Shown: positions 54,141-62,752 of the stretch, piece by piece
Numbering within the stretch: position 1 is the first letter of the stretch
Layout of the letters: the number at the start of each line of letters is the position of its first letter
Source: Streptomyces fagopyri
Lineage (GTDB): Bacteria; Actinomycetota; Actinomycetes; Streptomycetales; Streptomycetaceae
Direction: 5' to 3'
Length of the DNA stretch: 64,000 bases
NCBI RefSeq assembly: GCF_009498275.1
Contig: NZ_CP045643.1
Coordinates: forward strand, 5,890,001-5,954,000
Notes under the pieces: generated by a model
Databases searched by the model: none
The model's input: only the letters and a program-made list of their open reading frames with translations
What the model was told of the DNA's origin: nothing
Program-made: the position numbers and the translations under genes

Positions 54141-54986
54141 CTACTGCTGCTGGGCGACGGCCTTCTTCATCAGGTCGGTGACGTCGCCGACCTGCGCCGC
54201 CGGCGGGGCCTTCACATGGGCGGTGGCACCGAACTTCTCGAAGTCCATGGTGACCGTCATGGCACCGATGACCTCCTTCAGGCGCACCGGCAGGTCCTTG
54301 GCGCCGACCCAGACGTCCATGGTGATCGTGTCGGCGCCGCCGGTCGCCGAGTTGAAGAGGGTGTCGTCCTCGGACGCGAGGGCGTCCTTCGCCTTGCCCA
54401 TGTGGTTCTTGTCGATCACGGCCCAGTAGTGGGTCGCGCTCTTCCCGTCGACGGTCTCCTTGCCGAGGCTCTTGACGTCGCTCGCGTACTTCAGGCCCCG
54501 CATGCTGGCCGCGGGGCTGCCGGCGCCCGAGCTTCCGGTCAGCGCCTGGGCGCCCTTCTCACCGAACACGGCCGACCCGTCGACCTTCATCCACTCCTTG
54601 CCCTTGAGCGGGCCGGAGGACTGCGGCTCGGTGTCGTAGTAGTAGGCGCCGTCCACCAGGAGCGTGTGGATCGTCGGGGAGTGCGTCAGCGTCTCCATCT
54701 TGGCGGCCTTGGTGTCCATCTCGACGTCGTACGCGAAGCCGTCGCCCCAGGAGTAGGTGCCCTCCATGGCTATGGGGGCGCCGCCCTTCATCGCGGTGGT
54801 CATTTTGACCTCGGCCGAGCCCAGGGCGTCCGTCCGGTCCGTCGCCCGCCCCAGCGCCGCCATGATCGCGTCGGCGTGGCCGACCGCCTCGGCCGTCCTC
54901 TTCGCCGTCTCCGCACCGCATCCGGCCGTCCCGGCCAGCGCCACCGCGGCCACCCCGGCCCAGACGACGCCTCGCGTGTACCCCAT
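54141..54986 (-). CDS. LppX/LolA-like lipoprotein
   Basis: This 281-residue lipoprotein has an N-terminal signal (VVWAGVAAVALAGTAGC, lipid Cys about 23). The mature part has the long beta-sheet pattern of LppX/LprG-like or LolA-like proteins: alternating strands such as GSAEVKMTTAMKGGAPIAMEGTYSW, THYWAVIDKNH, ITMDVWVGAKDLPVRLKEVIG and MTVTMDFEKFG. These bind lipids in a hydrophobic half-barrel. ATG 54986 follows GGGGTGGGGAAC. It is a single gene ending in a shared terminator. Function is inferred from fold only. Confidence 0.82.
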   Translation of the reverse strand: MGYTRGVVWAGVAAVALAGTAGCGAETAKRTAEAVGHADAIMAALGRATDRTDALGSAEVKMTTAMKGGAPIAMEGTYSWGDGFAYDVEMDTKAAKMETLTHSPTIHTLLVDGAYYYDTEPQSSGPLKGKEWMKVDGSAVFGEKGAQALTGSSGAGSPAASMRGLKYASDVKSLGKETVDGKSATHYWAVIDKNHMGKAKDALASEDDTLFNSATGGADTITMDVWVGAKDLPVRLKEVIGAMTVTMDFEKFGATAHVKAPPAAQVGDVTDLMKKAVAQQQ

Positions 54987-55413
54987 GTTCCCCACCCCTG
55001 TCGTACTTCCTCTGTGATCAAGGACTCTAAGGGCAGGCTCCGACAGCGTCGCGCTCCGGAGAAGCCAGGAGCGCGGACCAATCCTGGTCAATTTCACTGC
55101 CTCGACTGCGGTTCTCGCCATGCGGTGATGAAACGGGTACCGCAGGCAAGTCAGCGGCATGACCTTTGAAAACAAGGTCACATTCCGATAGTTATTGATG
55201 ATTGCAACGGGAAGGCGTCAAGGCCTGGGAAAGCGATGTGGTGCGTGGCGCTCCGCTACTGCGGATTCCGCAGGTGAACGGCCATTGACGCAACGGTTTC
55301 CGTCAAGGTTCCATCAACGCGGGAGCGGACGACGAGATGTACGAGACGAGCCGCCGGAGGCGATAGCGCTCCCGCCCGAACCACCTGACGCACGAGTCGA
55401 TCGGAACCGCTCC
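54987..55413. other. Intergenic region with AT-rich patch
   Basis: No gene is supported. 55160-55215 is unusually AT-rich for this genome and probably carries promoters. TTGACG-N10-CGTCAA (55285-55306) is a possible operator for the downstream permease gene. Confidence 0.45.
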
Positions 55414-57353: not shown

Positions 57354-60008
57354 ATGGATCTTCGACTGCCCCGACTGCGCGGGCCCGCACCGCGGAAGCG
57401 GCGCCGGTGGACGACCGCGGCGGCCGCCGTCGTCGTGCTCGCCGGCGCCGGTACGTGGACGGCTGTGGCCTCGGACGACGGGCCGGCCGTCCACCGCGCC
57501 GACCGCGTCATGGCCATGGGCGGCGGGGTGCGCATCGACACCTCGTACTTCACCGCGGGCTCCGGCCGCCGCCCCGCCGTGCTGATCGGACACGGCTTCG
57601 GCGGCAGCAAGGACGACGTGCGGCAGGAGGCCGAGAAGCTCGCCCGTGACGGGTACGCGGTGCTCACCTGGTCGGCGCGCGGCTTCGGCCGATCCAGCGG
57701 CAGGATCGGACTGAACGACCCCGACGGCGAGGTCGCCGACGTCTCGAAGCTCATCGACTGGCTCGCCACCCGCCCGGAGGTCCGGCTCGACAAGGCGGGC
57801 GACCCGCGGGTCGGCGTCACCGGCGCCTCGTACGGCGGGGCGGTCTCACTGCTGGCCGCCGGGCACGACCCGCGGGTGGACGCGATCGCCCCCTCGATCA
57901 CCTACTGGAACCTGGCGGACGCCCTTTTCCCGAACGGCGTCTTCAAGAAGCTCTGGGCCGGAATCTTCATCAACTCCGGCGGCGGCTGCTCCCACTTCGA
58001 GCCGCGGCTGTGCGCGATGTACAACCGGGTCGCGGAGGCCGGCAAGCCCGACGCCGAGGCCCGGGCACTGCTGTCGTCCCGCTCCCCGTCCGCCGTCGCC
58101 GACCGCATCAAGGTGCCCACGCTGATCACGCAGGGGCAGACCGACTCCCTCTTCCCGCTCGGCCAGGCCGACGCCATGGCCAAGGCGATCCGGGCCAACG
58201 GCGCGCCCGTGGACGTCGACTGGATCGCGGGCGGACACGACGGCGGGGACATGGAGACCGACCGGGTCGAGGCCCGCGTCGGTTCCTGGTTCGACCGCTA
58301 TCTGAAGGACGACGGGAACGCCGACACCGGGCCCGCGTTCCGCGTCACCCGCACCGGGGGCATCGACTCCACCGACGGCGCCGTCCAGCTCAAGGGCGCG
58401 AGCGGCGACACGTACCCCGGCCTGGAGAGCACCGGGCACGCGGTCCCGCTCGGCACCGGCCGGGAGCGGAGCTTCCAGAACCCGGCGGGCGCGAGTCCGC
58501 CCGCGATCTCCGCCCTCCCCGGACTCGGCGGCGCAGGCGGCCTCTCCCAGCTCTCCTCCCTCGGCGTCGGCGTCTCGCTCGACTTCCCCGGCCAGTACGC
58601 GCGCTTCGACTCCGCGCCCGTCCGCGCCGGCCTGCGCGTCACGGGATCGCCGACCGTGAAGGTCCACGTCACGTCGAGCACCGACGACGCGGTCCTCTTC
58701 GGGAAGGTGTACGACGTCGGCCCGGGCGGCGCCCAGCCGGTGCTGCCCGCACAGCTGGTGGCCCCGCTGCGGGTGACGGGGGCCAAGGCGGGCAAGGACG
58801 TCACGATCGTCCTGCCCGCGATCGACCACGAGATCCAGAAGGGGCACCGGCTGCGGCTGGTCCTCGCCTCGACCGACCTCGGCTACGCCTCACCGGCCGC
58901 CCCGGCGACGTACACCGTCTCCCTCCGGAGCGACCTGGAGGTCCCCACGGCCCCCGGTGCGCGGACCGCCGCCGCGCCCCTGCCCTCCTGGGTGTGGTGG
59001 CTGCCCCTGACCGGAGCGCTGGTCGCCCTGGCGCTCCTGCTGACCGGCCGCCGCCGTATGACGCCGGGGGTACCCGACCCGGCACTCGCCGAAGTCCCGC
59101 TCCAGATCACCGACCTGAGCAAGCGGTACGCGAAGTCCGCGGACCGGTACGCGGTGCGCGAGCTGTCGTTCCGCGTCGAAAGAGGCCAGGTCCTGGGACT
59201 CCTGGGGCCGAACGGCGCCGGCAAGACGACGACCCTGCGCATGCTCATGGGCCTGATCAAGCCCGACGGCGGCGAGATCCGCGTCTTCGGGCACGCGATC
59301 CGGCCCGGCGCGCCGGTGCTCTCGCGGGTCGGCGCCTTCGTCGAGGGAGCCGGCTTTCTGCCGCACCTCTCGGGCCGCGAGAACCTGGAGCTGTACTGGC
59401 GGGCGACAGGCCGTCCGGCCGGGGACGCGCACCTGGCGGAGGCGCTGGAGATCGCGGGCCTGGGCGACGCGCTGGCCCGCGCGGTCCGCACCTACTCCCA
59501 GGGCATGCGCCAGCGCCTCGCCATCGCCCAGGCCATGCTCGGCCTGCCGGACCTCCTGATCCTCGACGAACCGACCAACGGCCTCGACCCGCCCCAGATC
59601 CGCGAGATGCGCGAGGTGATGATCCGCTACGCCGCGGCGGGCCGCACCGTCATCGTCTCCAGCCACCTGCTGGCGGAGGTCGAGCAGTCCTGCACCCACC
59701 TGGTGGTCATGGACCGCGGACGGCTGGTGCAGGCGGGCGAGGTCGGCGAGATCATCGGCTCCGGCGACACCCTCCTCGTCGGCACGGCCTCCCCCGTGGA
59801 CGGGCCGGTCGTCGAGAAGATCGGCGCCCTGCCGGGCGTGGCCTCGGCGGCCGCCGCCGAGGGCGGACTGCTGGTCCGCCTCGACGCGGACGGCAGCGCG
59901 GAACGCCTGGTCGTGGAACTCGTACGGCTCGAAGTGCCGGTGGCTTCGGTGGGCCCGCACCGACGCCTGGAAGATGCCTTCCTCACCCTGATCGGAGGTG
60001 CCGCATGA
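57354..60008 (+). CDS. CocE/S15-type hydrolase fused to ABC ATPase
   Basis: This 884-residue protein has four parts. Residues 19-40 are a membrane anchor. Residues 45-545 form an alpha/beta-hydrolase of the CocE/X-Pro dipeptidyl-peptidase type: GHGFGGSKDDV, then nucleophile elbow GVTGASYGGAVSLLAA, acid TQGQTDSLFPLGQ, GGHDGG, then a jelly-roll domain. A second membrane segment spans about 553-573 (VWWLPLTGALVALALLLTG). Residues 585-884 are an ABC ATPase (GPNGAGKTTTLRM, signature TYSQGMRQRLAIA, LLILDEPTNGLD). The hydrolase should face outside and the ATPase inside. The permease gene follows with ATGA overlap. Confidence 0.93.
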   Translation: MDLRLPRLRGPAPRKRRRWTTAAAAVVVLAGAGTWTAVASDDGPAVHRADRVMAMGGGVRIDTSYFTAGSGRRPAVLIGHGFGGSKDDVRQEAEKLARDGYAVLTWSARGFGRSSGRIGLNDPDGEVADVSKLIDWLATRPEVRLDKAGDPRVGVTGASYGGAVSLLAAGHDPRVDAIAPSITYWNLADALFPNGVFKKLWAGIFINSGGGCSHFEPRLCAMYNRVAEAGKPDAEARALLSSRSPSAVADRIKVPTLITQGQTDSLFPLGQADAMAKAIRANGAPVDVDWIAGGHDGGDMETDRVEARVGSWFDRYLKDDGNADTGPAFRVTRTGGIDSTDGAVQLKGASGDTYPGLESTGHAVPLGTGRERSFQNPAGASPPAISALPGLGGAGGLSQLSSLGVGVSLDFPGQYARFDSAPVRAGLRVTGSPTVKVHVTSSTDDAVLFGKVYDVGPGGAQPVLPAQLVAPLRVTGAKAGKDVTIVLPAIDHEIQKGHRLRLVLASTDLGYASPAAPATYTVSLRSDLEVPTAPGARTAAAPLPSWVWWLPLTGALVALALLLTGRRRMTPGVPDPALAEVPLQITDLSKRYAKSADRYAVRELSFRVERGQVLGLLGPNGAGKTTTLRMLMGLIKPDGGEIRVFGHAIRPGAPVLSRVGAFVEGAGFLPHLSGRENLELYWRATGRPAGDAHLAEALEIAGLGDALARAVRTYSQGMRQRLAIAQAMLGLPDLLILDEPTNGLDPPQIREMREVMIRYAAAGRTVIVSSHLLAEVEQSCTHLVVMDRGRLVQAGEVGEIIGSGDTLLVGTASPVDGPVVEKIGALPGVASAAAAEGGLLVRLDADGSAERLVVELVRLEVPVASVGPHRRLEDAFLTLIGGAA

Positions 60009-60868
60009 GCACGCTCGCCGAGCGGGCCGAGACGGCGGACGGCTACCGTCCACGGCACACGCTGCCCCTGCGCGTCGAACTGCTGCGCCAGCTCAAGCGC
60101 CGCCGCACCCTCGTCATGGGGGCGATCCTGGCGGTGCTGCCCTTCGTGCTCGTCGTCGCGTTCGCCATCGGTGGCCAACCCGGCTCGCGCAACGGGCAGG
60201 TCACGCTGATGGACACGGCGACGGCGTCGGGCGCGAACTTCGCCGCGGTGAACCTGTTCGTGTCCGCCGGATTCCTGCTGGTCATCCCGGTCGCGCTGTT
60301 CTGCGGGGACACCATCGCCTCCGAGGCCAGCTGGTCCTCGCTGCGCTATCTGCTCGCGGCCCCGGTGCCGCGCACCCGGCTGCTGTGGTCCAAGCTCGCC
60401 GTCGCGCTGGGCCTCAGCCTCGCCGCGATGGTGCTGCTGCCGGTCGTCGCGCTGGCGGTGGGCACCGCGGCCTACGGCTGGGGCCCGCTGGAGATCCCCA
60501 CCGGCGGCGTGCTCTCCACGGGCACCGCGACCCAGCGGCTCCTGGTGGTGATCGCGTACGTCTTCGTGTCCCAACTGGTCACGGCGGGCCTCGCGTTCTG
60601 GCTGTCGACCAAGACGGACGCGCCCCTCGGAGCGGTCGGCGGCGCGGTCGGCCTGACCATCGTGGGCAACGTCCTGGACGCCGTCACCGCTCTCGGCCAC
60701 TGGCGCGACTTCCTGCCCGCGCACTGGCAGTTCGCGTGGGCCGACGCGGTCCAGCCGCAACTGGTGTGGGCGGGCATGATCAAGGGCACGGCGATTTCGG
60801 TAACGTACGCGCTGGTCCTGTTCGCCCTGGCCTTCCGGGGTTTCCGGCGCAAGGACATCGTGTCGTAG
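60005..60868 (+). CDS. ABC-2 type transporter permease
   Basis: This 287-residue integral membrane protein starts at ATG 60005, inside the end of the fusion gene. About six membrane segments are visible (LVMGAILAVLPFVLVVAFAIGG, FLLVIPVALFCGDTIASEASWSSLRYLLAAPVPRTRLL, AMVLLPVVALAVG, VVIAYVFVSQLVTAGLAFWLS, TYALVLFALAFRGF). The loop between segments 2 and 3 is the ABC-2 coupling region. It must pair with the ATPase half of the upstream fusion to form the exporter. Confidence 0.92.
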   Translation: MSTLAERAETADGYRPRHTLPLRVELLRQLKRRRTLVMGAILAVLPFVLVVAFAIGGQPGSRNGQVTLMDTATASGANFAAVNLFVSAGFLLVIPVALFCGDTIASEASWSSLRYLLAAPVPRTRLLWSKLAVALGLSLAAMVLLPVVALAVGTAAYGWGPLEIPTGGVLSTGTATQRLLVVIAYVFVSQLVTAGLAFWLSTKTDAPLGAVGGAVGLTIVGNVLDAVTALGHWRDFLPAHWQFAWADAVQPQLVWAGMIKGTAISVTYALVLFALAFRGFRRKDIVS

Positions 60869-61030: not shown

Positions 61031-62752
61031 ATGGGGAACGACCACATACGGCGACCGCGGCGGGCGGTGGGCCGTGGAGGGACGGAACACTCCGGACGGC
61101 AAGAACGCGCCGATCGGCCGGAACACCTCGGCCGGCCGGAACACCCGGGGCGGCCGGGGCGCACCGGGCGACCGGAGGGCCCCGGGCGACCGGAGGGCCC
61201 CGGGCGGCGGGGGCGGCTGCGCGGCACCCTGCTCGGCCTCACCCTCGCGGGTGGCCTGCTGCTCACCGGGTGCAGCGGGAGCGACGGCAGCCACAGCTCC
61301 GCGGACGGCGCGGCGCGCGGGTCCGGCGGATACGCGGGCCCGCTGCCCGCCCCGAACCCGACCGCGGGCGCCGGCCAGGGCGAGCCGGACGGTGAACAGA
61401 CCGGCGACGCGCGCAGGGAGATCGCGCCGTCCCCCGACTACCTCTCCACCTTCGCCCTCGACGTCGACACCGCCTCGTACGGCTACGCCCGCCGCGCCCT
61501 CGCCGACGGACGGCTGCCCGATCCCTCCACCGTTCGCCCCGAGGAGTTCGTCAACAGCTTCCGCCAGGACTACCGGCGCCCCGACGGCAACGGCTTCTCC
61601 GTCACCGTCGACGGCGCCCGCACCCGGGACGAGGACTGGTCACTGGTCCGTGTCGGCCTCGCCACCCGCACGGCCGCGCCGGACGGCGAACGCCCGCCCG
61701 CCGCCCTCACCTTCGTCATCGACGTCTCCGGCTCCATGGGCGAACCCGGCCGGCTCGACCTCGCCAAGGACTCCCTGGGCGTGATGACGGACCGGCTGCG
61801 CGACGACGACTCCGTCGCCCTCGTCACCTTCAGCGACGAGGCCGAGACCGTGCTGCCGATGACCCGCCTCGGTCACCACCGAGGCCGCGTCCACGACGCG
61901 ATCGGCGGCCTCGAACCGACCGAGTCGACCAACCTCGGCGCGGGGGTGCGCACCGGGTACGACACGGCCGTCAAGGGGCTGCGCGAGGGCGCCACCAACC
62001 GTGTCGTCCTGATCTCGGACGCCCTCGCCAACACCGGGGAGACCGACGCGGACACCATCCTGGAACGCGTCTCCGGCGCCCGCCGCGAGCACGGCATCAC
62101 CCTCTTCGGCGTCGGCGTGGGCAGCGAGTACGGCGACGCCCTCATGGAGCGCCTCGCCGACAAGGGCGACGGCCACACGACGTACGTCTCGAACGACGAC
62201 GAGGCCCGCAAGGTCTTCTGCGAGCAACTCCCCGCGAACATCGACCTCACGGCCCGCGACGCCAAGGCACAGGTCGCCTTCGACCCGGGGACCGTACGGC
62301 AGTTCCGGCTCATCGGATACGACGACCGTCAGGTGGCCGACCAGGACTTCCGCGACGACCGGGTGGACGGCGGCGAGATCGGTCCCGGTCACACCGTCAC
62401 CGCGCTCTACGCCGTGCGCACCCGGCCCGGCGCCTCCGGTCACCTCGCCACCGCGAGCGTGCGCTGGCTCGACCCCCGCACCCGTACCCCGCACGAGGAG
62501 TCCGGCCAGTTGGAGACCGGCGGCCTCGACGGCGACCTGTGGACCTCCGCGCCCCGGCTCCAGGTCGACGCGGTGGCCGCGTACTTCGCCGACGCCCTGC
62601 GCACGGGCGGCGGCCGCGGGAGCGCGCTGCCGGGCGCCCTCCCCCTGTCCGAACTCGCGGGCCGGGCCCGTACGGTGGCCTCCGCCGCGGAGGACGGCGC
62701 GGTACGCGACCTCGCCGACTCGGTCGAGCGGGCGAGCCGACTGGCGGGCTGA
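61031..62752 (+). CDS. VWA-domain lipoprotein (YfbK-like)
   Basis: This 573-residue protein has an N-region of about 62 residues with GRPEHPGRP-type repeats before a signal with lipobox LLTGC (Cys81). A Ser/Gly-rich linker follows. Then comes a conserved YfbK-type N-domain (FALDVDTASYGYARRAL), a von Willebrand A domain with MIDAS residues (VIDVSGSMGEP, STNLGAG, LISDALANTGETD) and a C-terminal beta region (AQVAFDPGTVRQFRLIGYDDRQ). It is anchored outside and probably binds a partner through the metal site. ATG 61031 has GAGGGGGC in front. Confidence 0.88.
   Translation: MGNDHIRRPRRAVGRGGTEHSGRQERADRPEHLGRPEHPGRPGRTGRPEGPGRPEGPGRRGRLRGTLLGLTLAGGLLLTGCSGSDGSHSSADGAARGSGGYAGPLPAPNPTAGAGQGEPDGEQTGDARREIAPSPDYLSTFALDVDTASYGYARRALADGRLPDPSTVRPEEFVNSFRQDYRRPDGNGFSVTVDGARTRDEDWSLVRVGLATRTAAPDGERPPAALTFVIDVSGSMGEPGRLDLAKDSLGVMTDRLRDDDSVALVTFSDEAETVLPMTRLGHHRGRVHDAIGGLEPTESTNLGAGVRTGYDTAVKGLREGATNRVVLISDALANTGETDADTILERVSGARREHGITLFGVGVGSEYGDALMERLADKGDGHTTYVSNDDEARKVFCEQLPANIDLTARDAKAQVAFDPGTVRQFRLIGYDDRQVADQDFRDDRVDGGEIGPGHTVTALYAVRTRPGASGHLATASVRWLDPRTRTPHEESGQLETGGLDGDLWTSAPRLQVDAVAAYFADALRTGGGRGSALPGALPLSELAGRARTVASAAEDGAVRDLADSVERASRLAG
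61165..61200. repeat. 18-bp tandem repeat inside the VWA lipoprotein gene
   Basis: Two perfect copies of CGGGCGACCGGAGGGCCC encode the repeated GRPEGP of the protein's long N-region. Confidence 0.9.

What the first reader, a model, noticed from the sequence alone, without database searches (positions are those of the whole stretch)
57354..60868. Extracellular hydrolase and ABC ATPase in one chain, with coupled permease
The sequence directly shows a CocE/S15-type hydrolase with intact nucleophile elbow, two membrane segments that place it outside, and a complete ABC ATPase with all motifs in the same protein. The permease gene follows with a 4-base overlap. ABC exporters coupled to an external hydrolase in cis would let cleavage of an exported acylated or peptidyl substrate happen at the exit site, or let the ATPase gate the enzyme. 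I know of no characterised example of this architecture.
Basis: partly seen in the sequence, partly recalled or inferred. Interest (0 to 1): 0.8.

Follow-up and report, generated by a model that had tools for sequence, protein, structure and literature searches.

The report
ABC exporter carrying its own hydrolase
In this Streptomyces-type genome, the ATP-burning subunit of a membrane export pump is fused through the membrane to a hydrolytic enzyme that very likely sits outside the cell; the same two-gene machine recurs across the actinobacteria, seems not to have been described, and could cut its cargo as it leaves the cell.

Summary
One 884-aa frame (57354-60008) encodes a hydrophobic N-terminal segment, a CocE/NonD-S15 serine hydrolase with PepX_C, a second membrane segment and a complete ABC ATPase; an ABC-2 permease (60005-60868) overlaps it by four bases. 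It is no frameshift: the fusion was read in 73 distinct loci, window included (one, L046, lacks the hydrolase's first part), and in 77 of 80 loci from a hydrolase-only scan, the other 3 being cut by contig ends. The permease follows wherever the contig allows (71 of 71; 72 of 72). Catalytic residues and ATPase motifs are conserved; linker lengths are near constant. The ATPase occurs once in 183 of 199 same-genus genomes; the fusion reaches Nitriliruptoria but is patchy elsewhere (12 of 61 in the Planktophila order). No other conserved neighbour was found. Hydrolase-free relatives exist. Best reading: an ABC-2 exporter, probably two of each chain, that extrudes an amphipathic ester or amide compound and hydrolyses it at the outer face. 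Architecture is shown, outside location well supported; substrate, direction and coupling are inferred. New variant of a known kind.

The parts
57354..60008 (+). Fusion gene: N-terminal hydrophobic segment, CocE/NonD-S15 hydrolase, PepX_C, second membrane segment, ABC ATPase (884 aa)
57414..57470 (+). First hydrophobic segment (residues 21-39) after an Arg/Lys-rich N-terminus: signal anchor or cleavable signal peptide
   Evidence: hydropathy; present (>1.4) in 61 of 63 aligned sequences
57558..58193 (+). Alpha/beta-hydrolase (Peptidase_S15) domain, residues 69-280
   Evidence: TIGR00976 above its cut-off
57828..57830 (+). Catalytic Ser159 in GASYGG
   Evidence: 63 of 63; 72 of 73, L046 lacking that region
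57987..58013 (+). Cys212 and Cys220, conserved pair (likely disulfide)
   Evidence: 63 of 63; 69 of 72 assessable in the set, both lost together in L011, L028, L032; in 5 of 11 stand-alone relatives
58143..58145 (+). Catalytic Asp264
   Evidence: 63 of 63; 73 of 73
58236..58238 (+). Catalytic His295
   Evidence: 63 of 63; 73 of 73
58599..58904 (+). PepX_C domain, residues 416-517
58992..59048 (+). Second membrane segment (residues 547-565), followed by RRR
   Evidence: present in 63 of 63, linker lengths near constant
59097..60005 (+). ABC ATPase domain (residues 582-884); ABC_tran match 602-742
59205..59231 (+). Walker A GPNGAGKTT (618-626)
59343..59345 (+). Glu664 at the Q-loop position (E-loop)
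   Evidence: 73 of 73; 63 of 63; Ala in deep-branching L218
59493..59519 (+). ABC signature YSQGMRQRL (714-722)
59553..59570 (+). Walker B with catalytic Glu739 (734-739)
59664..59666 (+). H-loop His771
   Evidence: 73 of 73; 62 of 63 and one X
60005..60868 (+). ABC-2 permease, 287 aa, six hydrophobic segments; start codon overlaps the fusion's stop (ATGA)
   Evidence: predicted model mean pLDDT 88.3

Best explanation
A two-gene ABC-2 exporter in which each ATPase chain carries, across the membrane, its own extracellular serine hydrolase. Two fusion chains and two permeases would form one complex with two hydrolases standing above the exit. SHOWN by sequence: the domains, their order in one chain, intact catalytic motifs, overlap with the permease gene, and conservation across Actinomycetota. 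STRONGLY INFERRED: hydrolase outside, ATPase inside. INFERRED: the 2+2 assembly, and that the ATPase-permease pair removes a hydrophobic or amphipathic ester or amide compound from the membrane outward, in the manner proposed for BcrAB or LanFEG, while the tethered hydrolase cleaves it at the outer face so that it cannot partition back. Whether this clears toxic compounds or matures a product of the cell is open; I lean to clearance, because the module sits in varied gene contexts.
For: Domain order and cut-offs. Fusion in 73 distinct loci (window included) and 77 of 80 scanned loci; permease downstream in 71 of 71 and 72 of 72 loci whose contig reaches that far, with the -4 overlap in 54 of 71 and 57 of 72, the others within about 125 bases by start codon or by extrapolated alignment. 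Triad and ATPase motifs conserved while mean pairwise identity of the hydrolase is only 46% over 47 members; triad and Cys pair kept in the 10 deep-branching fusions aligned. Cys212 and Cys220 are present together or absent together, as expected of a disulfide outside the cell. Near-constant linkers: PepX_C to membrane segment median 39 residues (5-95%: 36-43), membrane segment to ATPase 25 (22-29), 63 sequences. Distances of hydrolase, ATPase and permease correlate (hydrolase-ATPase 0.73, hydrolase-permease 0.81, ATPase-permease 0.73; 1081 pairs), as shared descent predicts. Hydrolase-free ATPase-permease relatives exist, so the pair can stand alone. The ATPase's best NCBIfam hits are DrrA and the lantibiotic-protection ATPase; the permease is ABC2_membrane_4 with a weak MutE/EpiE match. 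[quoted passage not shown]
Against: No substrate, activity or transport was tested. No conserved neighbour besides the permease was found, by a crude method. The ATPase scores below the lantibiotic-immunity and DrrA cut-offs. Asp or Glu at the Q-loop position also occurs in the five other own-genome ATPases looked at (the best lantibiotic-model hits), so Glu664 is not specific. The ATPase is absent at 1e-100 from 16 of 199 same-genus genomes, and the fusion at 1e-100 from 49 of 61 in the Planktophila order, so it is not needed everywhere. The fusion's structure could not be predicted.
Confidence: 0.5

Rival explanations
1. The fusion only tethers: hydrolase and exporter work on different substrates, and joining them merely fixes the enzyme at the cell surface in a set ratio.
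For: Stand-alone relatives of the same hydrolase exist and keep the triad (11 of 11), 5 of 11 with the same Cys pair; ATPase-permease pairs also exist without hydrolase.
Against: In no locus examined did hydrolase and this ATPase lie next to each other as separate genes; linker lengths are near constant, which plain tethering would not need.
Confidence: 0.22
2. ATP-gated enzyme: the ABC core does not move a substrate but pulls on the outside hydrolase through the membrane, switching it on and off, in the style of FtsEX with cell-wall hydrolases (analogy recalled).
For: Covalent link from ATPase through one membrane segment to the hydrolase with near-constant short linkers.
Against: The permease matches ABC-2 families and no FtsX or MacB family in Pfam; no such gating is known to me for ABC-2 permeases (recalled).
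Confidence: 0.13
3. Nutrient capture: the hydrolase cuts outside esters or peptides and the ABC pair imports the product.
For: Outside hydrolase; presence in some freshwater lineages with small genomes.
Against: ABC-2 permeases are exporters as a class (recalled); no conserved neighbour family besides the permease was found, so no substrate-binding protein (crude).
Confidence: 0.1
4. Artefact: a frameshift or assembly error joining two genes in this strain.
For: None found.
Against: Same fusion in 73 loci and 77 of 80; the 240 proteins listed in two database searches, read by eye, all carry S15, PepX_C and ABC_tran domains (length-filtered, best 120 each, one probably the window's own).
Confidence: 0.01

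Closest known systems
CocE/NonD family hydrolases (TIGR00976; Pfam Peptidase_S15 with PepX_C), nearest solved structures 8yzn/8yzo 'Lipase'
   Same: The two-domain hydrolase aligns with 8yzo over residues 67-515 of the fusion (E 3e-28 for the hydrolase part); NCBI names a number of the fusions 'CocE/NonD family hydrolase'.
   Different: Known members are soluble or secreted enzymes without an ATPase (recalled); here a membrane segment and an ABC ATPase follow.
BcrAB / LanF-LanE type and DrrA type ABC-2 exporters
   Same: The ATPase's best NCBIfam hits are DrrA and the lantibiotic-protection ATPase; the permease is ABC2_membrane_4; Glu at the Q-loop position recalls the E loop of lantibiotic immunity systems (Okuda 2010: only its citation was seen; that the E loop takes the place of the Q loop is recalled).
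   Different: These models score below their cut-offs; I recall none with an outside enzyme on the ATPase chain.
Hydrolase-free sister pairs L205, L206, L207
   Same: ATPase 50-52% and permease 35-39% identical to the window's, adjacent, Glu at the Q-loop.
   Different: ATPase of 302-346 aa; no match to the window's hydrolase in the stretches fetched (about 1 kb upstream in L205).
Peptidase-containing ABC transporters (C39 type; recalled)
   Same: An exporter with a hydrolase in the same chain.
   Different: There the peptidase is a cytoplasmic papain-like C39 enzyme on a permease-ATPase chain (recalled); here it is a serine hydrolase, inferred outside, on the ATPase chain with a separate permease.

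Membership tests
CocE/NonD - S15 hydrolase family | Profile match above curated cut-off | tested here: met
   TIGR00976 98.9 bits vs 66.3; PF02129 80 vs 23, PF08530 44.9 vs 22.5
CocE/NonD - S15 hydrolase family | Ser-Asp-His triad | tested here: met
   Ser159, Asp264, His295 in 63 of 63; roles assigned from the family pattern, not by assay
CocE/NonD - S15 hydrolase family | Esterase, amidase or X-Pro dipeptidyl-peptidase activity | not testable with these tools
   no assay
ABC-2 exporter | Complete ATPase motifs | tested here: met
   Walker A, signature, Walker B, H-loop
ABC-2 exporter | Partner permease of an ABC-2 family | tested here: met
   ABC2_membrane_4 44.8 vs 27; ABC2_membrane_2 39.6 vs 27.2
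ABC-2 exporter | Outward transport | not testable with these tools
   no assay
Lantibiotic immunity LanF (TIGR03740) | Score over the family cut-off | tested here: not met
   167.7 bits vs 309.75; in the own genome no listed match reaches the cut-off
Daunorubicin exporter DrrA (TIGR01188) | Score over the family cut-off | tested here: not met
   175 bits vs 312.45
Peptidase-containing ABC transporter (C39) | C39 peptidase domain | tested here: not met
   no C39 match among the 13 Pfam families listed for the fusion
ABC importer | Substrate-binding protein encoded with it | tested here: inconclusive
   no shared neighbour family besides the permease stood out in 109 loci, but the crude gene calling recovered even the permease in only 62

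The most novel reading that the evidence does not exclude
An ABC machine that couples the ATPase cycle mechanically to an extracellular serine hydrolase in the same chain, so that ATP inside the cell powers release of a substrate into, or opening of, an enzyme outside it: ATP-coupled catalysis at the cell surface.
Probability: 0.25. Interest if true: 0.85.

Novelty: new variant of a known kind. Interest (0 to 1): 0.62.

Why it matters
It would be an ABC exporter with a built-in outside enzyme, present in about nine in ten sampled genomes of the window's genus and found down to deep branches of the phylum, yet hidden by annotation that names only one half, mostly 'alpha/beta fold hydrolase'. 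If cleavage is coupled to export, it is a ready-made model for making transport irreversible by chemistry at the exit, and a possible clearance or maturation route for acylated natural products in antibiotic-producing bacteria.

Tried and rejected
Frameshift or strain-specific artefact: rejected. Functional hint from gene neighbours: none shared besides the permease; an MFS transporter cluster reached 16 of 109 loci and an aldehyde-dehydrogenase-like cluster 14 (named by eye); TetR domains in 2 of 20 neighbours scanned. That clustering is crude: its gene calling recovered the permease in only 62 of 109 loci, although BLAST finds it beside the fusion, so a less conserved neighbour could be missed. 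Anti-phage defence: the PADLOC matches lie in the ATPase part only. RNA families, consensus promoters and terminators: none; the promoter scan covers only one promoter type. Solved relatives of the permease by sequence: none at E up to 1. Papers on 8yzn/8yzo: none relevant. E-loop as a marker of lantibiotic immunity: weakened; the E-loop paper itself is not held. A serine-protease survey that found a DD-peptidase joined to an ABC domain in Hahella was seen in passages; the words for S15 that I searched do not occur in it. A Streptacidiphilus genome paper, seen in passages, says nothing of this architecture there. Tree of hydrolase domains (48 fused, 11 stand-alone): two label changes; a single origin of the fusion is neither shown nor ruled out. 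The ATPase count of 28 of 396 genomes is an undercount: short-tailed ATPases such as those of the Planktophila group fail its threshold and only five candidates per genome were scored.
Full report
What is there. The frame at 57354-60008 encodes 884 residues. Pfam finds Peptidase_S15 (69-280), PepX_C (416-517) and ABC_tran (602-742), all above gathering cut-offs, and the overlapping gene at 60005-60868 is an ABC-2 permease. NCBIfam places the first half in the CocE/NonD hydrolases above the cut-off; ATPase models such as DrrA and the lantibiotic-protection ATPase match but stay below theirs. The hydrolase half aligns with solved 'Lipase' 8yzo at E 3e-28; among solved structures the ATPase is nearest by sequence to ABCA-type chains, then a bacterial ATP-binding protein (1vpl), NosF and Rv1218c. 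Hydropathy shows segments at 21-39 and 547-565 in the fusion and six in the permease. The permease was also modelled (mean pLDDT 88.3).

It is not an accident. In 36 same-genus relatives, 34 show hydrolase and ATPase in one frame; one (G008) shows only the later part, in a 505-aa frame whose cause I did not check, and one (G031) lacks it; 4 of 15 same-order and 1 of 9 same-class genomes have it (at most 15 candidates per genome were scored). Of the 90 loci held, I dropped 6 repeats and 11 stand-alone hydrolases; the remaining 73 distinct loci, the window's own included, carry hydrolase and ATPase in one frame. One of these, L046, has only the later part of the hydrolase, and the earlier motifs were not found on that strand of its 4.2-kb locus, so it looks truncated. 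The permease follows in 71, and the other two end at a contig edge; 54 of 71 have the -4 overlap, and the rest start between about 64 bases before and 124 bases after the fusion's stop, some by extrapolated alignment. Some genomes are in both sets. The 240 proteins listed in two database searches all show the three domains as I read the lists; candidates are length-filtered, only the best 120 are listed each time, and one is probably the window's own.

Distribution. The ATPase at E of 1e-100 or better is found, one match per genome, in 183 of 199 genomes of the genus, the window's included; the listed open frames are of fusion length except in G008 (505) and G865 (585), and the list is cut. 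At class level 81 of 296 genomes have a hydrolase match at 1e-40, fused or not. At phylum level 28 of 396 pass a strict ATPase threshold, an undercount. Among these 28, 24 lie in fusions, one is a fusion that starts at a contig end (G642), and three are hydrolase-free ATPase-permease pairs. Holders named by records include Streptomyces, Kitasatospora, Streptacidiphilus, Actinomadura, Nonomuraea, Modestobacter, Pseudonocardia, Phytohabitans, Williamsia and Candidatus Planktophila, Micromonospora, Salinispora, Euzebya and Salsipaludibacter, and a plasmid of Tsukamurella tyrosinosolvens. Euzebya and Salsipaludibacter belong to the class Nitriliruptoria. All holders that I saw named to a phylum or below are Actinomycetota; other phyla were not searched systematically.

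Conservation and topology. In 63 aligned fusions Ser159, Asp264, His295, Cys212, Cys220, Lys624, Glu664, Asp738 and Glu739 are invariant, while mean pairwise identity over the 47 members that also have an aligned permease is 46% for the hydrolase, 65% for the ATPase and 51% for the permease. In the other set of 73, Asp264 and His295 are invariant and Ser159 is missing only from truncated L046. There the Cys pair is present in 69 of 72 assessable sequences; L011, L028 and L032 have lost both Cys together, which is what a disulfide predicts. Ten deep-branching fusions keep triad and Cys pair (L217 was not aligned and L208 is truncated); one (L218) has Ala at the Glu664 position. The second membrane segment is present in 63 of 63, with more basic residues on its ATPase side in 62 of 63; the linkers on both sides have nearly fixed lengths. 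With the basic N-terminus and the Cys pair this puts the hydrolase outside and the ATPase inside; this is inference from sequence, not measurement. Of 11 stand-alone relatives, all keep the triad and five the Cys pair, so the pair is not a mark of the fusion itself.

Origin. In a tree of 48 fused and 11 stand-alone hydrolases the labels need two changes (mean 10.3 when shuffled), and many branches follow taxonomy. A single early fusion followed mainly by vertical descent fits, but one origin is not demonstrated. The hydrolase-free pairs suggest that the hydrolase was added to, or lost from, an existing exporter.

Context. Clustering of neighbouring genes in 109 loci gave no family shared widely except the permease; the next commonest were an MFS transporter (16 loci) and an aldehyde-dehydrogenase-like gene (14, mostly Streptomyces relatives). 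The method is crude and recovered even the permease in only 62 loci. Pfam of 20 neighbours gave a mixture. In the window the divergent gene is a GNAT acetyltransferase and the next gene downstream encodes a von Willebrand A-domain protein. The module therefore seems self-contained.

Mechanism. I favour export with cleavage at the exit. [quoted passage not shown] A tethered esterase or amidase at the same spot would make expulsion irreversible. The nearly fixed linker lengths favour a set geometry. The rivals (plain tethering, ATP-gated enzyme, import) are not excluded. Substrate, direction and coupling need experiments.

Known or new. Of ten paper searches of an open-access library, six aimed at this architecture; their listings showed no description. 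A 2024 classification of alpha/beta hydrolases names only PepX_C and PepX_N as extra domains of the S15 cluster in the section that I read (PMC11878206 section 2.9; other parts seen in passages). Subscription papers were not searched. Each half is a known kind; the combination is a new variant.

Noticed in passing
L220 (NZ_LR134452.1 219332-222591): A 386-kb Tsukamurella tyrosinosolvens plasmid carries the fusion (61% identical to the window's over 86% of it) with an ABC permease overlapping by 4 bases, possibly a horizontal transfer.
   Followed up: partly
   Followed up: partly
L011, L028, L032: Three same-genus fusions that have lost both Cys of the pair together.
   Followed up: partly
L046 (G302): A same-genus copy with only the later part of the hydrolase in frame; the earlier motifs were not found on that strand of the locus, so it looks truncated.
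   Followed up: partly
L076-L079, L087, L089: Stand-alone S15-type hydrolases that keep the triad but lack the Cys pair and form a clade of their own.
   Followed up: partly
G865:C1:4620359-4621267: A same-genus single-contig genome where the ATPase lies in an open frame of only 585 aa, possibly a broken or split copy.
   Followed up: no
L094, L103, L106: Records titled 'MAG: Bifidobacterium breve' whose titles look wrong: L106 groups with Nanopelagicales-type fusions in the tree, and L094 is 72% identical to the query from the Planktophila order.
   Followed up: no
window 61031-62752: Downstream gene on the same strand encodes a protein with von Willebrand A and YfbK domains, probably a lipoprotein (by eye).
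   Followed up: no
window 54141-55181 (minus strand): SCO4651-family lipoprotein by NCBIfam, no Pfam match.
   Followed up: no
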